Source: Clostridiales bacterium (GTDB lineage Bacteria; Bacillota; Clostridia; Christensenellales; DTU072). Taken from it: DNA of 64,000 bases. The notes beneath the pieces are model-generated. The model was not told where the DNA came from. It made no database searches and saw only the letters and a program-made list of their open reading frames with translations. Positions 29,655 to 44,556 of this stretch are shown piece by piece (position 1 is the stretch's first letter; each line of letters starts with the position of its first letter). The DNA lies in the NCBI GenBank assembly GCA_012838805.1, contig DUON01000010.1, forward strand, positions 65,072 to 129,071, read 5' to 3'. A program made the position numbers and the translations under genes.

Positions 29655-32600
29655 TTAAATGAACACTATTTTATCAGCAATGTCGTTAGAGTATATAATC
29701 TCGGAGCCCTCAGGCAGATAAATTGTTTCGACAGAATCCACAAAAGCATGGCTGACAATCTCATACACCCTCTTGCCCTGAATATACTCTGGGATATAGA
29801 CGGCTTTGGTATTGCCTGTAAACTGCAAAATTCTTATCCTTTGATTTTGAAGTTCCTCTATCGCATAACTACCATAAAGGGTAGTATTGGGGATGATTTG
29901 GTTGCCCATTTCCGCCCACAGCGTTCTGGTCCGATAGTCGCTTAAGTGATTGGGATTGACAAGCACCCTCAAAGCCGACGGAGTGTTCATAAACATGCTG
30001 CTTCCCCCTTCCACACGGTCTCTGGTGATATAAACCCTGTTGAGGGATGAACAGCCGTTAAACGCAAACGCCCTTATGAATTGTACATTATATGGAATAT
30101 CTATTTCTTTCAAAGATACGCAGGACTGGAATGTGCCTTGCAATATTTCGGTTATATCTGCAGGCAGGTTTATAGTTCTTAAATTATAGCAATTTCTGAA
30201 CGCATATTCCCCAATGCCTGTATCCCTTATGGTGTTAGGCAAAACCACCCTTTCAAGGGAAACACAGTCGCTAAAGCCGAACATGTTTATTTTTTGGTCG
30301 TATCCCGCCTCTAACCTTACGCTCTTTATAAAGGGATTTCCAAAATGCCTGCCGATAGATTTTACACTATAACTAACTCCGCCTATCTCCATTTGGGCAG
30401 GTATAACTAATTGGACTTCCTCTCCCCTGTATTTATTCAATTGTATACTTCCGCCGTCAAGTATCGTATAGGCATAGTCTCCGCTTATCAGATTGGGAAT
30501 AATATAATCAGGATAGACTAGCGGGTCTGGAACTCCACCCTCATTATAGCCCGCATATACCCTCCAGTTCTCCATAGTCCTATATCCGTCCAAGCTATAT
30601 CTTGGTACATAGATTTTTAAGAAAGGATTGTTTACATTGTTGAACAATCCCGCCCCCGCAGTAGTGAGCGGCACCGTCGGACTGGAGCTGGAATCTCTTC
30701 CCCTCATTATGTAAACTTCGGATAGGCTTGTGCATTCTGAGAATACCCCGTTATAAAGCGCCTCCACGCTGTATGGGATAACTATCTCGATAAGACTTGA
30801 ACATTTGGCGAACGCAAAATTCTCAATGACTGTCAATATACCGTCATAGAAAATCACTTCCCTAAGGTTTTCATTGTTATAAAAAGCGTATTCTTGGATT
30901 TGATAAAGTCTTGACGGCAGTTGGATTTCTTCAAGATTATGGTTTTCGCTGAAACAGTAACTTGCCAAAATCAAGGCGGGAATGTCTTGGTCGGGCAAAG
31001 AGTCAATATCCTCAAATTCAATAGAGCTTAAGGGAGTGTTCGCAAAGGCGTGGTTGTTGATGTTGCCAACCGAAGAGGGAATGACAATCGACTCTAAACC
31101 AGTTCCATAAAAAGCATATTGCTCTATTGTGTTCAAATTGGACCCGCTTTCAAAAATCACTTGCGAAATGCTGCTCTTATAGAAAGCATAATTTCTAATA
31201 GTCTCTACCGTATTGGGTATAGTCACGCTGTCTATTGTATAATCAAAGACATAAGTGCCTATGCTCTTAATTGTATAGTTCCCAATCATTGGAGGTATGA
31301 CCACATCTTTATTTTCGCCAAGATAGTGTACCAGTTCCGCAATCATGTTCGTGGAGTCAATAATGCTTATTACAAAATCGTCATACATGCTGTCCCAGCT
31401 CAAAATTCGTGAACCGTATCTTGACCAGTTTTCATTGTTTCTATAATAAGCAAGCTTGTTGTCCATAACATAGACTTTGACAAAATCACAATTTTCAAAC
31501 AAGCTGGTGGCTTGGTTTTCTAAATTCACTATGCGGCTGGTATCGCTGTCGTCATTCATATAAACGGATACAAGGTATTCACAATCCTTGAACACGCCGT
31601 CTTTTATGTTCTCCAGCCTTGAGGGAAGAGTAATTGTCCTTATATTGGTCTTGGCAAAAGCGAATCTTCCGATCTCTATCATTTCCTCTCCCAAGAACTT
31701 CACATCTTCCAATTGCATTCTTTTGCCGTCAGACCCAAAAGCGTAGTCGCCTATTCTGTCAACCAAAGGCGGCACCGTCACTTGACCAAGCAGAGTATTG
31801 GAATAAAAAGCATAGTTGCCTATCTCCCTAAGCCTGCTTGAATTCAAGGCTTCAATGGTGTTGTTAGAGAAAACGAGATTACTTATATTGGTGTCATAAA
31901 AAGCGTAGTTTCCTATTCGAATTAAGCTCAACGGAAGATTAACTGAGGCAAGAGAAGACGAATATCTAAAAGCGTTGTCCCCTATTTCCAAGACTCCTTC
32001 GGGTATTTGGATGCTGTTTAATTTATAATTAAAGCTATATCCGCCTATCTCCAGCACCGGCAGACCTTGAAGTTCGGCAGGAAGAGAGATGTTTCTTTCA
32101 GCCCCAAGATATTTAAGAATCCTTACTCCCTCCAATACAAAAACCACATCCTCGACCATAACGGTATGTTCTCTGCCCAATTCGTCATATAAGAGTATGG
32201 GTCTTAAATTATTTGTCTGATATGACTTGAACTCTAAAGTATAATCAAAGTCGTTTATAAAATGAGTGAAAGTTTTTTGTTCATAGTCTGCATACCCCAA
32301 GGGTTTTTTATTTAAGGTCTCGGGAAGCTTCAATTCCTCTCTTAAGTCCTCGAATTCTGAGGTGCTTTGATTTAACACCCCAAGATAGTCTACAATATTT
32401 ACCGCATGGTATGCTTTATTAATTATTTCAATTGAATATTCGTCCCTTAATGTCTCAATAGAATCTATCTTTTCCGCCAGATTTCGCCAATACCTTGCTT
32501 TTATGTACTCATGCTTTATGGCGTCATATACATAAATCATCAATTCTTTGGGCGTGTTGGCAAAGACATCATTGTTCTGTAATTGAGTCAAAGACTGATT

Positions 32601-35600
32601 CACACCTCTTTCCACCACAACGCTTGTTAGCGATGAGCAATGGTTAAAAATTCTTGTTCCAAGATGAGTCACGCTATCGGGAAGGGTAATGGTGCTTAAT
32701 TGAGAACAATATTGAAACGCATAATTTCCGATAGACTCCAATAGGCTTATTTCATTATCAAGTGATTTTCTAAAAGTTATTTCCTTAAGCGCCATTTGAT
32801 TGTCTTTACTGCCTGCGAAAGAGTACATGCCTATTGTCCTTAGCCTCCAAGGCAAGCGTATTGTCTCAAGGGAAACGCAGTTTTGGAATGCATAATTGGA
32901 TATGGTTGTCAAAAGGCTGTTATCGCCCAATTGCACATCGATTAAGGATGAACAGCCATAAAACGCATGTTCCCCTATATGTTGGACGCTGTCACTTATG
33001 ATTACCCTTTCCAAAGAGACGTTGTTATAGAAAGCTCTATCAGCTATCTTAGTTACGCCTTGTGGGATTCTGACCGTTTTCAATATGGCGTTGTAGCTAA
33101 AGGCGTTCTGACCTATTTCCTTTACTCTCAGACCTCTTATGGTCGAGGGAATGACCAGATTGTCGCCTGCTTCGGCAAGCCCTATGTACTTAATAATCCG
33201 GCAGCTTTCGCTGTCGCCGGGAAGTATTTCAATAATAAAATTCTCAACCGATAGAGAAGAGCTCCTTATCCTTTCGGTATAAGTCCTCCACATGATATTT
33301 TGGCGGTATACATACTCCATGCCCCCGCCTACATAGAATTCAAGTTCGGGTGCCGTGTTCTCAAAAGTGTCCTCACTAATTATAAGCACCGATCCGCCTG
33401 TTTCGTCCACATCTATAAGTATGCTCTTTAAGAATCTATTTCCGCTAAAAGCCTTGCTTCCAAGCTCTATTGTGTTCTTTGATATAGAGTATGTTGAGCC
33501 TTGTTTTCCGGCTGGATACAAAATAAGCAACTGGTCTTCCCCGTATGGCTGGGAATCGTACTCTACATTCTTGGTGTAGAGCACATTGTTCATTGTCTTA
33601 TAGTAGGGGTTTTGAATGTCCACTTCCAAAAGCTCAAGGTTGTCGCACCCATAAGCGGGGGCGTCGCCTATCATAGATACCATTCTTAATGAAAGGCTGG
33701 TAAGGCTCTTGCACCCCGAAAAGCTGTAACTTCCCAAGGTATACGCTCCGTCAATGGATATCTCGACATTTTGCAAGTTTATACAGTTATAAAAAGCATA
33801 GTCTCCTATGTATTCGACAGTGGAAGGTATTGTAATAAAGGTAAGACCTCGGCAGCCATAAAAAGCACCTTGGGATATGGTGACAAGACCCTCATTTAAG
33901 ATAATTTCTCTGAGAGCCGAAGAGTTGCGGAAAACATATTCGCCAATCTCTATGACACTGTCGGGCAAGGCAAATATCCTTATGTCTTCGGAAAGAGCGT
34001 ATCTATCGTATCCTGTAAGCTCCTTAAAATTTAGATTTGAATTTTGTATCGTTCCATATCCTATATTTTCAAAAGCGCCTTCGCCGATATAGACACACTC
34101 GGAGTTATCCGAAAACTCAAAAAGCATGAGATTCCTGTTGTCCTTAAAGGCGTAGGATAGAATCTGTGAAACTCTTTGAGGGAGATATACATAGAACAGA
34201 TTGGTGTCGGCAAAACTATATTCACCTATTATCAATTCCTTTTCTCCGTCCTCAAACATTAAGTCTTGCCGATAAGCTATCACGCTCATGCCGTCTTTAA
34301 ATGCATTCAGCGCAGCGCTTCCCAGACCGCTTTTATAGAAAGCATAGTCGTCAATAAAAGTTGTCCGTGCGGGGATTGTGAACTTATCTATCGCTGAACA
34401 ATAGCTGAAAGCGTATTTTCCTATGGACAAATCCATCTCGCCCTCTAAGAAGACCAAATCTTCTATGCTCTGACAGCCATAAAAGGCATAGTCCCCTATC
34501 TTTACAAAATGAGAAGGGATGACCACTGTTCTTAGTTCATTGCAGTTTTCAAAGATATTGGCGCCCATTTCCACGCCGCCTTCCTTAAAAACAGTGCCTT
34601 GCAACGATTCAAATTCCATTCTTTTCAGATTGTAGCAGTTGGCGAATATATGAGAGCCCATGTCCGTAAGACGGTTGGGTAGGACAACCTCTCTCAGCAT
34701 ATGGCAGTTATCAAAGACATATCTTCCCAATTCAAGCTTTGTGTCGCTTGCCGCAAATACCAAATCGCTCAACCCCACGCACCATGAAAAGGCAAAGTCT
34801 TTTATTTCTTCAAGCCGTGAAGGGAATACGAGTTGAGTTATTCTTGAACACTCATAAAAAGCGTAGTCATCTATTGTCAAAGACTTCTCACTATCCGACT
34901 GGTCAAATTCAATATTAAGAAGATTGTAGCTTCCCCAAAACGCATACTTTCCAATTATGGTCACTCTTTCGGGTATTATTATTTCGGATATGCTGTTGTG
35001 TGAAAAAGCATAATCGCCTATTATCAAGTTGCTGTCTTCGTCCTCGTCGGGATCAATCGTAATCATAGACAGATATCTACAATTATTAAAGGCATACTCT
35101 CCAATTGTCTTTACTCTTTTGCTTATCACAACTTGTGTCAGATATGAGTTATTTGAAAAAGCGTAATCCCCAATGTCCAATGCTGCCCCTTCAGCAAAAG
35201 TAAGAGAAGTTATTCTCGAAGTGTAGAAAGCGTACGGCGCTATCTGCTCCACATCTGCGGGGATTTGAAAAGCGACGGATCTGCCAGACGGGAAAAGAGC
35301 TATGGTCCTTTCACCTAACTTGTTATACAAGACATTAATGCCCTGATTGTCTTCAATTTTATAGTATTGGTTGGAGCTGTCTGCAGTAAACCCTATAAGG
35401 CTTGAACAGTTGCTGAAAGGATTGCCCTCAATACTTTCAATAGAAGAAGCGATTCTAAAGTTCTGTAACGAAGTGCATCCCTCAAAAAGATTGTTAGGCA
35501 AAACCTTCAAAGACGGCGAAGAACCCCAAGCGATATCCGTCAAGTTAATACATTGGGCAAATGCCTCCTTGCCTACAGTTTCAAGACTGTTCACCAATGT

Positions 35601-38141
35601 TATATTGGTGAGAGATTGACAATCAAAAAATGCCCTTTCCCCCACGGTTTCGGTTATTGGGAACAGAAGTCTTTTATTTTCTTCATGTCCGCTCTGCAAT
35701 TGCCTGCAATTTTCAAACGCGGAGATGCCGATACTCTTTACGAGGCTGGGGTTTGAGATTGAACCCGATTGTATGCTGTTCAAATTCACACAGCCATAAA
35801 ATGCATAATCGCCTATGCTTTCCACCGAATAAGGAAACTCAATTTGTGTCAAATTGGTGTTCCTATAAAAAGTGTACGGCTCTATCCGTTTCAAGACATT
35901 GTTATATCGGTTGAAAGTAATCATTAAGGAAGAGCAGTTATAAAACGCTTTGGCGCCTATCGTCTCCACCTTTTCAGGCACGGTAAAGTACAATAGGGAA
36001 GAGCAGTTAGAGAAAGCGCCTTCGCCGATTGTTTCAAGAAGTCTGTTGCCCTCAGAATCAATATCCACATTCAAGGTGGTCAAGTTCATGCTGTCACCCT
36101 CTTCCGCGGCAAAGGCGTAATCGCCAATAGAGACCAAAGAAGCGGGTAGAAGGATGTCCCTTATACTGAAGTTCCTATAAAAAGCATAGTCTCCGATTGA
36201 GTTAAGTTGACTTCCCGCTGTGATAAAATCCACAATCAAATATCTGCAATTATAGAAAGCGTAATCTCCAATGACTTGCACTGAAGCTGGAATGGTCACA
36301 TCCCTAAGATATGCGCAATTCTTAAAAGCGCTGTGACCGATATTCCATAGCCCTTCGGACAAGTTGATCTCTTCCAGTCCCATAAGTTCATCGCCTATGG
36401 AACTAAAAGCTGAAGCCCCTATGGTCGCAAGAGTGCCTTGTGGCAGTACGATTCTTTTTACTTTATGCGCACCGCTAAAGGCATAGTCCCCAATAACTTG
36501 TAGCTGGGAGTTTTCTACGAAATTCACTCCTTGAAGATTGGGCATATTATAAAAAGCGTACTCTCCAATGACCGACACCATGGAAGTGATAGTGACGCTG
36601 GTTAAATTTATGTTCCCTCTAAAAGCATTTGGACCTATAAACCTTGTGGTCATAGGCACGACATATTCAAAAAGCGGATTGCCTAAAGAATCTACTCCTC
36701 TATGAATGCCTCCCCTGTTGGGGAAATAAATTAAGGTCTCATTGTCCAATGAGAAAATGACTCCGTCATTGTCGCTAAATTGTTCATGATTCTCGGCTAC
36801 CGTAAACGCCCTTATGTTCGCATCCTTGAAAGACAAATAATTTATTGAAGTCATGCTTCGGGGAATGAAGAATTCCTCCAGCATCATGCATCCCGAAAAA
36901 GCGCCTTCACCGATTTGGGAAAGATTGGAGTTGTTTTCTATATTCACTTTGGAAAGGAGCATATCCCTGCCTGATTGAGAATCAAAAGCAAAAGCATAGT
37001 CTCCAATGGTTTCTAAAGACGACGGCAGGGAAATCTGCTGAATTCTCGTGCAGCCCATAAACGCCGCATCGCATATCTTTGTCAGCTGAGAGTTCTTTTC
37101 AAATCTGACGACAGAGAGTTCGCTGGTTTGAGAAAAAGCCATGGAACCTATATATTTGACGGTATTTGCAATAAAAATGTTCCTTAAACTCGATGTGTTG
37201 AAGACAGAATGCGCGTCCAAAGCCTCTTTATTGTTTATTTGGTCATAAGGAGTGTCATATCCTATGTATCTGACGGGGATACCGTCAATCTGCGCTGGGA
37301 CAAGCATATTGGTAAGATAAATCGCCGCTCTTGTGATATCGATTATTCTTATGGCATTGTCCACTCCGCCTTCATAGTCCGCTCTTTCAAATAAATAATA
37401 GTCCCTAATCTGATTTTGGCTCACCCACCATGCGTAAAGGGTAACATCGCTGGAGGGCATGACATCGGGGAAAATATAAGGCGTATTAAAGTTGGGGTCA
37501 TAGTACCAGCCCCCGAAATAATATCCATCTCTAACGGGGTCTTCGGGTATCTCATAAGCTTGGTTCATATAACCCGATACTATGTGATAAGGCTCTTTTT
37601 GCTCGTCGGTAATAAAAGTCATGTTATAGGTTCTTAAGGTATACACCGCGTTTATGACATAACTTTCCGTGATGTTTCTGATATCGATATTATTTAAGTC
37701 CCAATGTCCTTCATATCCCTCTCTTTCAGGCACTGAAGGCATATAATTGGCTAAGGACTCACCATAGGGAATGGTTCGGTATATGTATTCGTAAGTAGGT
37801 TGAGTAATCATGCTCGCCCTGAAAGTAATTGTCAATTCTCTGGGTTCCCAAGCAGCGTATAGAGTTATGGTCTCGGTAGGCACCTCGCTAGGATTAAAGG
37901 CGATGGTCCTCTCCTCGTTCAAGTACCATCCTGCAAAGTCATATCCCTCTTTTGAGGGAGGGTCGGGCAAGCGCACAAAAGTGGTATCGGGGGAAATTAT
38001 TATTGGTTTAATCTCATCTCCGCCGTCGGTATCAAAAATTATCCTCACGCTTTGGGTGGTACAACCGCAGACGATAAGCGCCGCTAATACCATAACGATG
38101 ATGAATACAAAGCTCTTTAATATTCTTTTTTGACTAGCCAT
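29655..38141 (-). CDS. giant lipoprotein with InlB repeats and about 60 BspA-type leucine-rich repeats
   Basis: This 2828-residue protein begins with a signal peptide ending in the lipobox VCGC, so it is anchored by lipidated Cys at about 26. Two or three InlB-type repeats (GYDFAGWYLNEERTIAF, GYYFGGWYYDPNFNTPY) occupy about 35-240. From about 250 to the end run BspA-type LRRs of about 23 residues, typical unit IGDYAFYNCxxLxxIxIP. Six blocks are closed by a Y-R-x4-W-x6-I cap (about 1614, 1884, 2240, 2526 and 2740) and each next block opens with a Y-L/x-G...IPxxIxGxxVxEIG motif; the last block is cut to one repeat. Host-glycan adhesion is likely, as for BspA. The DNA reflects this with a 69-bp periodicity of AAAGCATAGTC-like words. 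The start has AAGGAG. Confidence 0.9.
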   Translation of the reverse strand: MASQKRILKSFVFIIVMVLAALIVCGCTTQSVRIIFDTDGGDEIKPIIISPDTTFVRLPDPPSKEGYDFAGWYLNEERTIAFNPSEVPTETITLYAAWEPRELTITFRASMITQPTYEYIYRTIPYGESLANYMPSVPEREGYEGHWDLNNIDIRNITESYVINAVYTLRTYNMTFITDEQKEPYHIVSGYMNQAYEIPEDPVRDGYYFGGWYYDPNFNTPYIFPDVMPSSDVTLYAWWVSQNQIRDYYLFERADYEGGVDNAIRIIDITRAAIYLTNMLVPAQIDGIPVRYIGYDTPYDQINNKEALDAHSVFNTSSLRNIFIANTVKYIGSMAFSQTSELSVVRFEKNSQLTKICDAAFMGCTRIQQISLPSSLETIGDYAFAFDSQSGRDMLLSKVNIENNSNLSQIGEGAFSGCMMLEEFFIPRSMTSINYLSFKDANIRAFTVAENHEQFSDNDGVIFSLDNETLIYFPNRGGIHRGVDSLGNPLFEYVVPMTTRFIGPNAFRGNINLTSVTITSMVSVIGEYAFYNMPNLQGVNFVENSQLQVIGDYAFSGAHKVKRIVLPQGTLATIGASAFSSIGDELMGLEEINLSEGLWNIGHSAFKNCAYLRDVTIPASVQVIGDYAFYNCRYLIVDFITAGSQLNSIGDYAFYRNFSIRDILLPASLVSIGDYAFAAEEGDSMNLTTLNVDIDSEGNRLLETIGEGAFSNCSSLLYFTVPEKVETIGAKAFYNCSSLMITFNRYNNVLKRIEPYTFYRNTNLTQIEFPYSVESIGDYAFYGCVNLNSIQSGSISNPSLVKSIGISAFENCRQLQSGHEENKRLLFPITETVGERAFFDCQSLTNITLVNSLETVGKEAFAQCINLTDIAWGSSPSLKVLPNNLFEGCTSLQNFRIASSIESIEGNPFSNCSSLIGFTADSSNQYYKIEDNQGINVLYNKLGERTIALFPSGRSVAFQIPADVEQIAPYAFYTSRITSLTFAEGAALDIGDYAFSNNSYLTQVVISKRVKTIGEYAFNNCRYLSMITIDPDEDEDSNLIIGDYAFSHNSISEIIIPERVTIIGKYAFWGSYNLLNIEFDQSDSEKSLTIDDYAFYECSRITQLVFPSRLEEIKDFAFSWCVGLSDLVFAASDTKLELGRYVFDNCHMLREVVLPNRLTDMGSHIFANCYNLKRMEFESLQGTVFKEGGVEMGANIFENCNELRTVVIPSHFVKIGDYAFYGCQSIEDLVFLEGEMDLSIGKYAFSYCSAIDKFTIPARTTFIDDYAFYKSGLGSAALNAFKDGMSVIAYRQDLMFEDGEKELIIGEYSFADTNLFYVYLPQRVSQILSYAFKDNRNLMLFEFSDNSECVYIGEGAFENIGYGTIQNSNLNFKELTGYDRYALSEDIRIFALPDSVIEIGEYVFRNSSALREIILNEGLVTISQGAFYGCRGLTFITIPSTVEYIGDYAFYNCINLQNVEISIDGAYTLGSYSFSGCKSLTSLSLRMVSMIGDAPAYGCDNLELLEVDIQNPYYKTMNNVLYTKNVEYDSQPYGEDQLLILYPAGKQGSTYSISKNTIELGSKAFSGNRFLKSILIDVDETGGSVLIISEDTFENTAPELEFYVGGGMEYVYRQNIMWRTYTERIRSSSLSVENFIIEILPGDSESCRIIKYIGLAEAGDNLVIPSTIRGLRVKEIGQNAFSYNAILKTVRIPQGVTKIADRAFYNNVSLERVIISDSVQHIGEHAFYGCSSLIDVQLGDNSLLTTISNYAFQNCVSLETIRLPWRLRTIGMYSFAGSKDNQMALKEITFRKSLDNEISLLESIGNYAFQYCSQLSTITLPDSVTHLGTRIFNHCSSLTSVVVERGVNQSLTQLQNNDVFANTPKELMIYVYDAIKHEYIKARYWRNLAEKIDSIETLRDEYSIEIINKAYHAVNIVDYLGVLNQSTSEFEDLREELKLPETLNKKPLGYADYEQKTFTHFINDFDYTLEFKSYQTNNLRPILLYDELGREHTVMVEDVVFVLEGVRILKYLGAERNISLPAELQGLPVLEIGGYSFNYKLNSIQIPEGVLEIGDNAFRYSSSLASVNLPLSLIRIGNYAFYDTNISNLVFSNNTIEALNSSRLREIGNYAFYSNTLLGQVTVPPLVDRIGDYAFGSDGKRMQLEDVKFLGEEMIEIGRFAFAKTNIRTITLPSRLENIKDGVFKDCEYLVSVYMNDDSDTSRIVNLENQATSLFENCDFVKVYVMDNKLAYYRNNENWSRYGSRILSWDSMYDDFVISIIDSTNMIAELVHYLGENKDVVIPPMIGNYTIKSIGTYVFDYTIDSVTIPNTVETIRNYAFYKSSISQVIFESGSNLNTIEQYAFYGTGLESIVIPSSVGNINNHAFANTPLSSIEFEDIDSLPDQDIPALILASYCFSENHNLEEIQLPSRLYQIQEYAFYNNENLREVIFYDGILTVIENFAFAKCSSLIEIVIPYSVEALYNGVFSECTSLSEVYIMRGRDSSSSPTVPLTTAGAGLFNNVNNPFLKIYVPRYSLDGYRTMENWRVYAGYNEGGVPDPLVYPDYIIPNLISGDYAYTILDGGSIQLNKYRGEEVQLVIPAQMEIGGVSYSVKSIGRHFGNPFIKSVRLEAGYDQKINMFGFSDCVSLERVVLPNTIRDTGIGEYAFRNCYNLRTINLPADITEILQGTFQSCVSLKEIDIPYNVQFIRAFAFNGCSSLNRVYITRDRVEGGSSMFMNTPSALRVLVNPNHLSDYRTRTLWAEMGNQIIPNTTLYGSYAIEELQNQRIRILQFTGNTKAVYIPEYIQGKRVYEIVSHAFVDSVETIYLPEGSEIIYSNDIADKIVFI

Positions 38142-40306: not shown

Positions 40307-40335
40307 TTGACAACGGCTTAAGCGGTCACTATAAT
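40307..40335 (+). promoter_or_regulatory. full-consensus sigma-A promoter of the tRNA-Thr gene
   Basis: TTGACA at 40307-40312 and TATAAT at 40330-40335 are exactly 17 bp apart, a perfect consensus as expected for a stable RNA gene. The tRNA begins 32 bases downstream. Confidence 0.88.
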
Positions 40336-40367
40336 ATAGAGTGCGTAAACTCAAACAATAAACATAC

Positions 40368-40443
40368 GCTGATGTGGCACAGCAGGTAGCGCAACGCCTT
40401 GGTAAGGCGTAGGTCGGCGGTTCGAATCCGCTCATCAGCTCCA
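40368..40443 (+). tRNA. tRNA-Thr (anticodon GGT)
   Basis: Acceptor strands GCTGATG (40368-40374) and CATCAGC (40433-40439) pair perfectly. The anticodon stem ACGCC/GGCGT encloses TTGGTAA with anticodon GGT at 40401-40403, and the T-arm has GGTTCGAATCC. CCA is encoded at 40441-40443. It is a lone tRNA with its own promoter and terminator. No integration site or repeat of its 3' end was seen in the window. Confidence 0.95.
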
Positions 40444-40561: not shown

Positions 40562-41761
40562 TTAAGCTCTCTTTACCTTTTTTTTCTTTATCGGTAAATC
40601 TGGAATTTCGCCGGCTTTGGAGAGAGCTATCTTGGAAAGTGCAGAGCCTACAAGCTCATAGAATAAGACCGAACCCAATATAACCGTTCGAATTTGTTCG
40701 GCATAATGAGGTAGAGCCTGAGAGGCGACTATCATCAATCCCAACGCCACTCCCGCTTGGGGCAAAAGAGTGAGTCCAAGATATTTCTTCACGGTAGGAG
40801 GGCTTTTCATAACCACAGCCCCCAGCCAAGAACCGAACATCTTGCCGGTGGCTCTGGTTACTATATAAATAATTCCGATTAAGCCGACCATAGGTATAAC
40901 CCTGATGTCAAGCGATGCGCCCGACAATACGAAAAAGAGCATAAGTATAATGGGAGTCATAAGCTCTGATAGTTCTATCACAGAATCGGCTTCTTTAGAG
41001 ATATTTACCAAGACTCCGCCGAATATCATACATGTCATTAAGGACGAGGCGTCAAAATAATTGCTTAAAGCGGATGCAATGAATATCGTGCCCGCAATGG
41101 CGCACATTCGATTGGACTTTTTCTTAAAAAAGCGAAGAGGAATTAATAATATAAGAGCGGCGCCTACCCCTATGAGAGCGGAGATTCCTATGCTTATCAA
41201 CGGTTTCACAATGGCGGCATATAAATCAAACGCTCCTGTGGTCATTGATTTTGCCACATTGATAGCGAAGAAAAAGAGTATAAGCGCCAGCGCGTCGTCA
41301 AGCGCCACCACGCTTAACAGCATTTTGGTGACAGGTCCGTTGGCGCGGTATTGTTTAATTATCATTATGGTAACTGCGGGAGCTGTCGCCGTCGCGATTG
41401 TGCCAAACACCAAAGCAAGCGCCAAATCGACCTTAAAAGCGATAAGCCCAAGCGTAACCAGTACGCCGGCTAATATCCCCTGAAACAAAGTGATGACAAT
41501 GGACGCGACGCCTATTTCTTTTAGAAACGATATCTTAAATTCCGCCCCAATAAACAAGGCAATAAACGCCAACGCTATTTCGGATACTATGGCATTGATA
41601 CTGTTTACCGTATCCAGACTGAATACTCCCAAGACATGCGGACCGAATATCAGCCCAGCGATAAGATACCCTGTGACATTAGGCAGTCCTATCAGTTTTG
41701 TCAATCTTCCAAAAAGCAATCCGCAAAGAAGCATAATGCCTATATATAAAAGTACACTCAA
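40562..41761 (-). CDS. CPA2-type cation:proton antiporter
   Basis: This 399-residue membrane protein of the Na+/H+ or K+/H+ exchanger superfamily has about 12-13 helices. The N-terminus LIGLPNVTGYLIAGLIFGPHVLG and the middle LLSVVALDDALALILFFFAINV, with paired Asp in a transmembrane helix, are typical for KefB/NapA-like antiporters. There is no TrkA-N or TrkA-C cytoplasmic domain; regulation may instead come from the separate P-II-like protein encoded just upstream. The ATG overlaps the stop codon of that gene (ATGA at 41758-41761), so the two proteins are made in a fixed ratio. Likely roles are pH or salt homeostasis at the cytoplasmic membrane. The ion is unknown. Confidence 0.9.
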   Translation of the reverse strand: MSVLLYIGIMLLCGLLFGRLTKLIGLPNVTGYLIAGLIFGPHVLGVFSLDTVNSINAIVSEIALAFIALFIGAEFKISFLKEIGVASIVITLFQGILAGVLVTLGLIAFKVDLALALVFGTIATATAPAVTIMIIKQYRANGPVTKMLLSVVALDDALALILFFFAINVAKSMTTGAFDLYAAIVKPLISIGISALIGVGAALILLIPLRFFKKKSNRMCAIAGTIFIASALSNYFDASSLMTCMIFGGVLVNISKEADSVIELSELMTPIILMLFFVLSGASLDIRVIPMVGLIGIIYIVTRATGKMFGSWLGAVVMKSPPTVKKYLGLTLLPQAGVALGLMIVASQALPHYAEQIRTVILGSVLFYELVGSALSKIALSKAGEIPDLPIKKKKVKRA

Positions 41762-42105
41762 TTTTCCAGTCCCTTCCCAAAAGCGTATTCTAAATTAAGC
41801 ACAAACATTATCCCGGTGTCGGGTTGAGAAAAGTCAATGACTCTTTTTGTGGCATTCAATATAGTATCTTCTTGATCTTTGCGGATTACTGCAAATATCG
41901 TCTTTGTCTTTTCGTTCTCTCCATGGCGTAAATATTTGCGTATTGAATTAAAGAAAGAAATATCTTCCTCTTGCGAGCCAAGAAGACTCCGAGCCATGCC
42001 CGAACTTTCTAAAATTGTAGCACCGCAAATTTTTTCCTTTGCGTACTCACGCATTAAATCGCCAAGCTTTTCGGTTTGGTTTAATACCAATACAAATAAT
42101 TTCAT
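41758..42105 (-). CDS. P-II-like protein cotranslated with the cation antiporter
   Basis: This is a 115-residue protein with a P-II-like pattern: MKLFVLVLNQTEKLGDLMREYAKEKICGATILESSG for the first strand, helix and second strand, then a variable loop (SLLGSQEEDISFFNSIRKYLRHGENEKT) and TIFAVIRKDQEDTILNATKRV, ending TGIMFVLNLEYAFG like the other two P-II-like proteins at 16539-17222. The conserved T-loop Tyr of GlnB is absent. The start has AAGGAGAGG directly upstream, abutting a terminator hairpin. A regulatory subunit that gates the antiporter by sensing a nucleotide is the most likely role (inference). Confidence 0.72.
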   Translation of the reverse strand: MKLFVLVLNQTEKLGDLMREYAKEKICGATILESSGMARSLLGSQEEDISFFNSIRKYLRHGENEKTKTIFAVIRKDQEDTILNATKRVIDFSQPDTGIMFVLNLEYAFGKGLEN

Positions 42106-42220
42106 ATCCTCTCCTTATAAAAAAGAACAGGCTAAAACTGTTCTTTTGGTAATACTATTTTACAGTGTTTAAGAGTAAAAGAAGTCGACCTTTAGCCATC
42201 GCAACCGATTAAGTAATCGC
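42106..42220 (-). promoter_or_regulatory. candidate riboswitch/attenuator leader of the P-II-like/antiporter operon
   Basis: The predicted transcript runs from about 42220 to the ATG at 42105. It contains, in order, a 5-bp hairpin (CGATT and AATCG, 42206-42219), an 8-base element GGCTAAAG (42190-42197), and an intrinsic terminator (42121-42147) whose loop and first right-arm base read TTTTAGCC (42130-42137). GGCTAAAG can pair with this loop element (seven Watson-Crick pairs and one G-U), which would compete with or lock the terminator. The ribosome site AAGGAG (42111-42116) lies right after the terminator. No known riboswitch consensus was recognised. Confidence 0.6.
42121..42147 (-). terminator. 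intrinsic terminator inside the leader, just before the ribosome site
   Basis: On the minus strand AAAAGAACAG pairs with CTGTTCTTTT (perfect 10-bp stem, 7-base loop), followed by two more T bases. Since the only good promoter lies upstream at 42227-42255, transcripts must pass this hairpin, so it acts as an attenuator. It could also stop read-through from the MMPL gene. Confidence 0.8.
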
Positions 42221-42226
42221 TATAAT

Positions 42227-42255
42227 ATAATAGCTCTTTTTTTGTGCTTTGTCAA
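42227..42255 (-). promoter_or_regulatory. sigma-A promoter of the P-II-like/antiporter operon
   Basis: On the minus strand TTGACA (42250-42255) and TATTAT (42227-42232) are 17 bp apart. Transcription is expected to start near 42220, giving a leader of about 115 bases. Confidence 0.8.
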
Positions 42256-42306: not shown

Positions 42307-44556
42307 TCATTCTTTATTCTTATTGTTCCGACGCCGAAATACAACCTTAAAATCCATTTTTTCAATTAATTTATCACACACCAATAACACAGAAGGCAGG
42401 ACCAACAATACAACCAATACCGAGGTAGCGGCACCTATTCCCAAGAGCATACCCATTTTCGCCACAACCCCCGAAGCCACCAGCCCCATAGCCAATCCCG
42501 AAACCGTCAGAATCGTGCCCGAAGTGATGATTGTAGGGAAGACTGCGTTTTCGGCGTTCGCCATGGCATCGAATCTATTGGAATATAAATGCTTGATGGA
42601 CAAGTAACGGTTGGTCAAAATAATGGCATAGTCTATGGTTGCCCCCATTTGAATGGCACATACCAAGAGGTATCCGACAAATGAAATGGGACTTGACGAT
42701 AAGAAAGGAATGACAAAATTTATCCACATTCCGCCCTGAATGGCAAGTATAAGAATGAGCGGAAGGATAAAGTTCTTAAAAGTAAAGAAAAGTATCGTCA
42801 AGACAAATAAAACGGTCAAGAAGCTTACCAAAAAATTGTCTCTTGGGAATGTCTTTGCCATATCGTAGCATGCCACGCTTTCCCCTGCCAAATAATATTC
42901 GTCATAGAATTGTCCCAATTCCGTGCTAAGCTCTTCTATCAGCTTTAGGCTTTCCTTGCTCTCTGTCGGACTGTTGATATTAAAGACAAGTCGAGAGTAG
43001 TTTTGGCTCTCAAAGTTCGCCCGCGCCATTGTGATTTGCTTTAAGCCCTCGGCGATTTCTCCATCCTGCATGCCCATGTCTTGGATTTTTTGTGACGCAA
43101 ATACCATTAAGTCAACAAGCCTTACCGCATATTCAGATGACGGCGTTTGACTGTCGGGATCGTTTTGTTTTCTATACAAATTGAACAGCGATTTAACAAC
43201 AACCGAACTAAACCCATAGGAACTCCCCGCTTGGATAAGCTGATCTTGGGTCACATAATCAACAAGCCTCAAGCCCTCCATAGCCTCGATAGACGCAAGA
43301 CCCGTTCCGTCATTTACAATATCCTTGCTCTTGACATATTCTATAAGCTCCCTCTCTTTCTGGTAATCTCCTTTGGGCACGATAATAGCCAAATCGTTTT
43401 TATAACCAAACTCTTCTGCAATCTTGTCTTGCGAATCAATTATGCGCTTGGCACCATTGATATTGTAGGAATATTCGTTAAAGAATTGCCCCGTTCCCGC
43501 CAAGGCTATGATTACAATAAAAACAGCCGCTATGGGTTTTCTGAACTTGAGCTTGGCTCTGGCGGGCTTTGTCACCGAGGGAACAAAGTTTTTATGTACT
43601 GTCTTTTGCAGCTGTTTATCAAAAATAATCAATAAAGAGGGCATAAAGAATATTACCGTCAGCAAACTAAAGACTATGCTCTTGGCAAGTGCGAGTCCCA
43701 TTTCCACCCCCAGAGGCAGTGTCATGACAATAAGGGAGCAAAGCCCGGCAATAGTCGTCATAGAGCTTGACAGAATCTCCAATATCCCCTTGGACAAAGC
43801 CCGTACAGCAGATTCCTTCGCATCACTGTCCATACGCTCTTCCATAAACCTATGTAAAAGGATAATCGCATAGTCCAGCGACAAGGTAAGCTGTAAGATC
43901 AAAGCCACCAGATTGGAGATATAGGATATTCCGTTAAATAGGAAATTGGTACCCATATTCAATACAACGGATACCCCAAATACTAAAATCAAGATAATTA
44001 TCTCAAAATATGTCCTTGAAGTAAATAGCAGCATAATTATTATCGCAAGCACAATGATTATGCCTACTTTTATGATACTTTCCACAGTTTCCAAGCGGGT
44101 ATAATAGGACATGGCGGATTGTCCGCTCAGATAAGTTTCTTTATTGGAAAACTTTTTTATTATGCCCTTTATGGTAGCGTTTGCCTCGGAAGTAGAATCA
44201 TAATCCGTCAAGGAGACTGTAAATAAAGCATTGCCGTTTTTATAGTCTTTTTCCTTGTCGAAAGCAGCAAACGCCACCCCGTCCATTTGGTTAAGCTCGT
44301 CCAAAATCGTCAGCGCCTCGTCTTGAGTGACGCCTTTTACCATTATGTAAGCCGAACCTTTGTCGTCGAACTCCCTTTTCAAAATGGCGACGGAATCTTG
44401 TGTGAGGCTGTTTTTAGGAGCGGACTGGCTCAAGTCGTATACAACCTTGTTTTGAAAAATCATTATTCCGCCTAAAACGACAAGAACAATAAAGACAGTG
44501 ACGAAAACCCATTTATTTTTTACTATGAAACTTGCGAATTTTTCTTGCATGTCCAA
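42307..44556 (-). CDS. MMPL/RND-family transporter
   Basis: This 749-residue membrane protein exports lipids, drugs or other hydrophobic compounds. Twelve helices are arranged as 1+5 twice, with two large extracytoplasmic loops. The first loop is at about 40-150 and the second at about 370-545. The RND/MMPL helix motif with the proton-relay Asp appears as LSLDYAIILLHRFMEER at about 225 and as MGATIDYAIILTNRYL at about 640. The length matches bacterial YdfJ/MmpL-like proteins. It has its own promoter with an overlapping palindromic operator. No regulator gene is adjacent. Confidence 0.92.
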   Translation of the reverse strand: MDMQEKFASFIVKNKWVFVTVFIVLVVLGGIMIFQNKVVYDLSQSAPKNSLTQDSVAILKREFDDKGSAYIMVKGVTQDEALTILDELNQMDGVAFAAFDKEKDYKNGNALFTVSLTDYDSTSEANATIKGIIKKFSNKETYLSGQSAMSYYTRLETVESIIKVGIIIVLAIIIMLLFTSRTYFEIIILILVFGVSVVLNMGTNFLFNGISYISNLVALILQLTLSLDYAIILLHRFMEERMDSDAKESAVRALSKGILEILSSSMTTIAGLCSLIVMTLPLGVEMGLALAKSIVFSLLTVIFFMPSLLIIFDKQLQKTVHKNFVPSVTKPARAKLKFRKPIAAVFIVIIALAGTGQFFNEYSYNINGAKRIIDSQDKIAEEFGYKNDLAIIVPKGDYQKERELIEYVKSKDIVNDGTGLASIEAMEGLRLVDYVTQDQLIQAGSSYGFSSVVVKSLFNLYRKQNDPDSQTPSSEYAVRLVDLMVFASQKIQDMGMQDGEIAEGLKQITMARANFESQNYSRLVFNINSPTESKESLKLIEELSTELGQFYDEYYLAGESVACYDMAKTFPRDNFLVSFLTVLFVLTILFFTFKNFILPLILILAIQGGMWINFVIPFLSSSPISFVGYLLVCAIQMGATIDYAIILTNRYLSIKHLYSNRFDAMANAENAVFPTIITSGTILTVSGLAMGLVASGVVAKMGMLLGIGAATSVLVVLLVLPSVLLVCDKLIEKMDFKVVFRRRNNKNKE

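What the first reader, a model, noticed from the sequence alone, without database searches (positions are those of the whole stretch)
42106..42255. Candidate new riboswitch or attenuator controlling a P-II-like/cation antiporter operon
A 17-bp-spaced consensus promoter (42227-42255) fires into a ~115-nt leader that must cross a perfect 10-bp intrinsic terminator (42121-42147) before reaching the ribosome site at 42111-42116. An upstream element GGCTAAAG (42190-42197) can pair over eight bases with TTTTAGCC (42130-42137), which is the terminator loop plus the first base of its arm, and a small hairpin lies at 42206-42219. That is the plan of a terminator-type riboswitch. I recognise no known class. 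Ion antiporters are known to be under Na+, Li+ or c-di-AMP riboswitches in other bacteria, so the ligand might be an ion or nucleotide.
Basis: partly seen in the sequence, partly recalled or inferred. Interest (0 to 1): 0.75.

Follow-up and report, generated by a model that had tools for sequence, protein, structure and literature searches.

The report
Leader hairpin before PII-like/antiporter operon
A real terminator-like RNA hairpin sits between a strong promoter and an operon encoding a P-II-like protein and a cation antiporter, but there is no evidence for a ligand-sensing riboswitch, so it is best read as an ordinary, lineage-specific leader attenuator or weak terminator.

Summary
The hairpin is not chance (0 of 5000 shuffles), though it is the weakest terminator-like hairpin among the window's upstream intergenic regions (-9.0 kcal/mol, 3 G-C pairs). 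It is not MMPL's usual terminator: it lies 160 nt past MMPL's stop, and a congeneric MMPL without the operon lacks it. The riboswitch part fails. The GGCTAAAG/TTTTAGCC 'antiterminator' is near chance (12% of shuffles for 7 Watson-Crick pairs, 29% for 8 with G-U) and 3.6 kcal/mol weaker than the terminator. Rfam gives nothing. The leader has no convincing homologue in 396 genomes of the order or in the six nearest operons. Across 95 operon leaders the usual layout is a short leader, with any terminator before the promoter; a few, including two lineages of the closest genus, have unrelated leader terminators. A Leu-rich leader ORF (MAKGRLLLLLNTVK) lacks a Shine-Dalgarno and its geometry does not fit classical attenuation. 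Verdict: ordinary lineage-specific attenuator, sensor (if any) unknown.

The parts
42227..42255 (-). Promoter TTGACA-17-TATTAT; transcription start expected near 42220-42221
   Evidence: 11 of 12 consensus positions; start site inferred
42206..42219 (-). Small 5-bp hairpin CGATT-ACTT-AATCG near the 5' end of the leader
   Evidence: in the minimum-energy fold
42155..42199 (-). Possible leader ORF MAKGRLLLLLNTVK* with five consecutive Leu codons; no Shine-Dalgarno
   Evidence: Leu run >=5 in any frame in 0.3% of shuffles; post hoc, unproven
42190..42197 (-). GGCTAAAG, proposed antiterminator strand; overlaps codons 1-4 of the leader ORF
   Evidence: pairing with the loop near chance level, 3.6 kcal/mol weaker than the terminator state
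42119..42147 (-). Terminator-like hairpin (10 bp, 7-nt loop, -9.0 kcal/mol) plus U-run
42111..42116 (-). Shine-Dalgarno AAGGAG of the P-II-like gene
41758..42105 (-). P-II-like protein, 115 aa
   Evidence: 44 of 52 homologues match Pfam P-II at E<=0.1, best 1e-7; AlphaFold pLDDT 83; Foldseek top hits are P-II proteins
40562..41761 (-). Cation:proton antiporter (Na_H_Exchanger, CPA2-like); start overlaps the P-II-like stop
   Evidence: the CPA2 subfamily match is below its curated cut-off
42307..44556 (-). Upstream codirectional MMPL transporter gene

Best explanation
The P-II-like/antiporter operon has its own promoter and a ~115-nt 5' leader with a weak intrinsic terminator just before the ribosome site. 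RNA polymerase starting near 42220 meets the hairpin; some transcripts stop, and the rest read through into the operon. The hairpin belongs to the operon's 5' end in this lineage and is not a member of a conserved riboswitch class. Whether read-through is constitutive or is modulated by a protein, a translating ribosome or another RNA is unknown. Shown: the sequence elements and the absence of detectable homologues of the leader. Inferred: the start site, and that termination actually happens.
For: Hairpin far beyond chance. It lies downstream of an 11/12 promoter and 160 nt beyond the MMPL stop, whereas the four other terminator-like hairpins in the window's upstream intergenic regions start 4-40 nt after the upstream stop and are stronger, -12.8 to -17.4 kcal/mol. 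The congeneric MMPL orthologue (74%) without the operon lacks the hairpin. At the end of the U-run the terminator state dominates, P=0.996. A hairpin plus U-run within 90 nt of the gene occurs in 8 of 95 operon leaders against 1-2 in shuffles; two of those (L147, L156) are probably upstream terminators by promoter position. The closest genus has a terminator hairpin shared by two lineages, in a leader where 4 of 28 predicted pairs change on both sides.
Against: Only 3 G-C pairs in the stem, so termination may be inefficient. No RNA data. Most homologous operons lack a leader terminator, so it is not needed for the operon's function. In a third lineage of the closest genus (L121) no hairpin with U-run is seen.
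Confidence: 0.6

Rival explanations
1. Terminator-type riboswitch of a new class sensing an ion or nucleotide.
For: Promoter-leader-terminator layout; antiporter genes are under Na+ and Li+ riboswitches elsewhere (PMC9337991, PMC9646797). The antiterminator fold is transiently the best at ~95 nt of transcript.
Against: Only ~74 nt remain upstream of the terminator, and the leader as a whole folds no better than shuffles (z = -0.54). Antiterminator pairing near chance level. Nothing but noise in Rfam even at E 10. No convincing homologue of the leader in 396 genomes of the order or in the six nearest operons, though an aptamer should be the best conserved part.
Confidence: 0.06
2. Ribosome-mediated attenuator: translation of the Leu-rich leader peptide MAKGRLLLLLNTVK sets termination.
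For: ORF 42199-42155 with five consecutive Leu codons, a run seen in 0.3% of shuffled leaders, ending 7 nt before the terminator stem; the proposed antiterminator strand lies in codons 1-4.
Against: No Shine-Dalgarno. A ribosome stalled on the Leu codons would cover GGCTAAAG and so favour termination, the reverse of classical attenuation. The short ORFs in L119/L120/L148 share no peptide with it. Found post hoc, and a pyrimidine-rich stretch makes Leu runs likelier.
Confidence: 0.12
3. The hairpin is simply a terminator for MMPL read-through, with no role in the operon.
For: MMPL is codirectional and has only a weak hairpin of its own (AAGCTTggataAAGCTTcTTTT). In many relatives the terminator near this operon belongs to the upstream gene.
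Against: In those relatives the terminator lies before the promoter; here it lies after it and 160 nt past the MMPL stop. The congeneric MMPL lacks it.
Confidence: 0.12
4. The hairpin does not terminate but affects translation or mRNA stability, being 4 nt from the Shine-Dalgarno.
For: U-run and purine-rich SD can pair in the full-length fold.
Against: The U-run and layout fit a terminator; the SD pairing is expected of any U-run next to an SD.
Confidence: 0.1

Closest known systems
Intrinsic leader terminators / transcription attenuators of Bacillota
   Same: Promoter, untranslated leader, hairpin with U-run before the gene
   Different: Weak stem, no credible antiterminator, no known sensor
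Na+ (DUF1646) and Li+ (nhaA-I, nhaA-II) riboswitches
   Same: Located upstream of cation transporter genes (PMC9337991, PMC9646797)
   Different: No match of the leader to any Rfam 15 model; no conserved aptamer
Amino-acid (Leu) leader-peptide attenuators
   Same: Short ORF with a Leu run before a terminator
   Different: No Shine-Dalgarno, geometry reversed, genes not amino-acid biosynthetic

Membership tests
Riboswitch (terminator type) | Match to a known aptamer class | tested here: not met
   no Rfam hit to the leader at gathering; only noise at E<=10. Speaks against known classes only
Riboswitch (terminator type) | Aptamer conserved with covariation across homologues | tested here: not met
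   no convincing leader homologue found, so covariation cannot be computed for this leader
Riboswitch (terminator type) | Mutually exclusive antiterminator better than chance | tested here: not met
   12-29% of shuffles match the loop region as well; 3.6 kcal/mol weaker than terminator
Riboswitch (terminator type) | Ligand binding alters structure or termination | not testable with these tools
   needs bench work
Leader intrinsic terminator | Hairpin plus U-run downstream of promoter, upstream of gene | tested here: met
Leader intrinsic terminator | RNA 3' end at the U-run | not testable with these tools
   no transcript data
Leader-peptide attenuator | Translated leader ORF with Shine-Dalgarno | tested here: not met
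   ORF present, no SD-like motif
Leader-peptide attenuator | Ribosome stall disfavours the terminator | tested here: inconclusive
   geometry from coordinates suggests the reverse
P-II superfamily (41758-42105) | P-II fold | tested here: met
   (the single sequence alone is below the Pfam cut-off)

The most novel reading that the evidence does not exclude
A lineage-specific sensing leader (RNA aptamer or leader peptide) that controls a P-II-like/antiporter operon in response to an ion, nucleotide or leucine, with close homologues only in unsampled genomes.
Probability: 0.12. Interest if true: 0.55.

Novelty: new member of a known kind. Interest (0 to 1): 0.2.

Why it matters
It removes a riboswitch candidate that rests on a near-chance pairing, while recording that P-II-like/antiporter operons, widespread in Clostridia, occasionally carry unrelated leader terminators. 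My few literature searches found no paper on regulation of this gene pair, and the leaders of the closest genus would be a better starting point than this one.

Tried and rejected
Rfam scans of the window, the leader and 39 homologous loci: no riboswitch upstream of the operon. Leader DNA search in 396 order genomes: best hit outside the own genome is E 4e-5 over 34 bases (per genome), in the promoter part, the level expected for the best of ~400 genomes of AT-rich DNA or a little below it; not followed up. Pairwise leader comparison with the six nearest operons: p 0.08-0.63. Direct scan of genome contigs with the P-II-like protein: nothing; a scan with the antiporter alignment gave 80 loci. 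Phylum sampling and plasmids gave no closer relatives. Covariation could only be looked at on the leaders of the closest genus, three sequences of which two are near-identical.

Full report
Observation. The promoter matches 11 of 12 consensus positions with a 17-nt spacer. The hairpin AAAAGAACAG-TTTTAGC-CTGTTCTTTT is perfect over 10 bp, runs into six U, and ends just before the Shine-Dalgarno. In dinucleotide shuffles of the 201-nt intergenic region no copy out of 5000 gave such a hairpin. Among upstream intergenic regions of the window it is the weakest terminator-like hairpin found (-9.0 against -12.8 to -17.4 kcal/mol), and the only one far (160 nt) from the preceding stop codon.

The operon. 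The 115-aa protein has a P-II fold: alone it falls below the Pfam P-II cut-off, but 44 of 52 homologues match P-II at E<=0.1 with a best E of 1e-7; the AlphaFold model (pLDDT 83) has P-II proteins as its top Foldseek matches. The next gene is a Na_H_Exchanger-family antiporter, CPA2-like. The pair recurs widely in the class: 95 distinct leaders with both genes were collected.

Riboswitch test. The antiterminator GGCTAAAG/TTTTAGCC is matched by 12% (7 Watson-Crick pairs) to 29% (8 with G-U) of shuffled leaders. With the U-run complete the terminator state is 3.6 kcal/mol better and has probability 0.996; the antiterminator is only transiently best at about 95 nt. The whole leader does not fold better than shuffles (z -0.54). 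Rfam 15, which as far as I know includes the Na+, Li+ and c-di-AMP classes, gives nothing at gathering and only noise at E 10. The leader DNA has no convincing relative in 396 genomes of the order or in the six nearest operons, L119, L120, L121, L148, L039 and L008. Covariation therefore cannot be tested for this leader, and the riboswitch claim has no support left beyond its layout. A class confined to unsampled close relatives is not excluded.

Not MMPL's terminator. In a congeneric genome (G001) in which the P-II-like gene was not found, the MMPL orthologue (74% identical) is followed by a different, GC-rich hairpin and a convergent gene. In most relatives with a nearby terminator it precedes the operon promoter; here it follows it. 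So the hairpin goes with the operon's leader, on one comparison.

Relatives. The usual layout is a short leader: in 79 operons with a recognisable promoter the median distance from the -10 box to the start codon is 58 nt (promoters are consensus matches only). A hairpin with U-run in the last 90 nt occurs in 8 of 95 against 1-2 in shuffles; by promoter position L147 and L156 are probably upstream terminators. The remaining leader terminators are unlike one another by eye. The closest P-II-like homologues (58-68%) lie in another order's family (f38, genus g187), not in this genus. There, L119/L120 and L148 share a homologous leader (z 3.7-5.1) with a terminator hairpin in common; 4 of 28 predicted pairs change on both sides in at least one sequence, too few sequences for a formal test. 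In L121 the corresponding U-run is not seen. That leader is not alignable with ours.

Leader peptide. ATG 42199 opens MAKGRLLLLLNTVK* with five Leu codons. A Leu run that long in any frame occurs in 0.3% of shuffles, but it was noticed post hoc, there is no Shine-Dalgarno, and a ribosome stalled on the Leu codons would hide GGCTAAAG and favour termination. I keep it as a rival at 0.12.

Conclusion. The most likely mechanism is a weak intrinsic terminator in the operon's leader acting as a lineage-specific attenuator or basal throttle; what, if anything, relieves it is unknown. Steps shown: elements, statistics, lack of homologues. Steps inferred: start site, actual termination, regulation.

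Noticed in passing
L119, L120, L148 (same leader as L040) upstream of the P-II-like gene: The closest genus (g187) shares a 130-200-nt leader with an extended -10 promoter and a common terminator hairpin; 4 of 28 predicted pairs change on both sides in 3 sequences. A better attenuator candidate than the window's own leader.
   Followed up: partly
window 40562-42105: The P-II-like gene was not found in the two other held genomes of the genus, and only 19-32% identical copies occur elsewhere in the family, while 58-68% identical copies lie in another family of the class: horizontal transfer or differential loss.
   Followed up: partly
L014 (same leader as L090), last 180 nt before the P-II-like gene: A 148-nt leader after TTGACG-17-TATAAT with a strong hairpin (-15.7) and U6; no Rfam match in the gathering scan of L014.
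   Followed up: partly
window 40307-40440 (+): A perfect 12/12 promoter lies 32 nt before a tRNA gene, just downstream of the antiporter gene on the opposite strand.
   Followed up: no
window 29655-38141 (-): A 2828-aa lipoprotein-like ORF made largely of repeated 'IGDYAF' leucine-rich-type units.
   Followed up: no
L024 1071-1230 (-): M-box (Mg2+) riboswitch near a P-II-like homologue, on the strand opposite to the gene.
   Followed up: no
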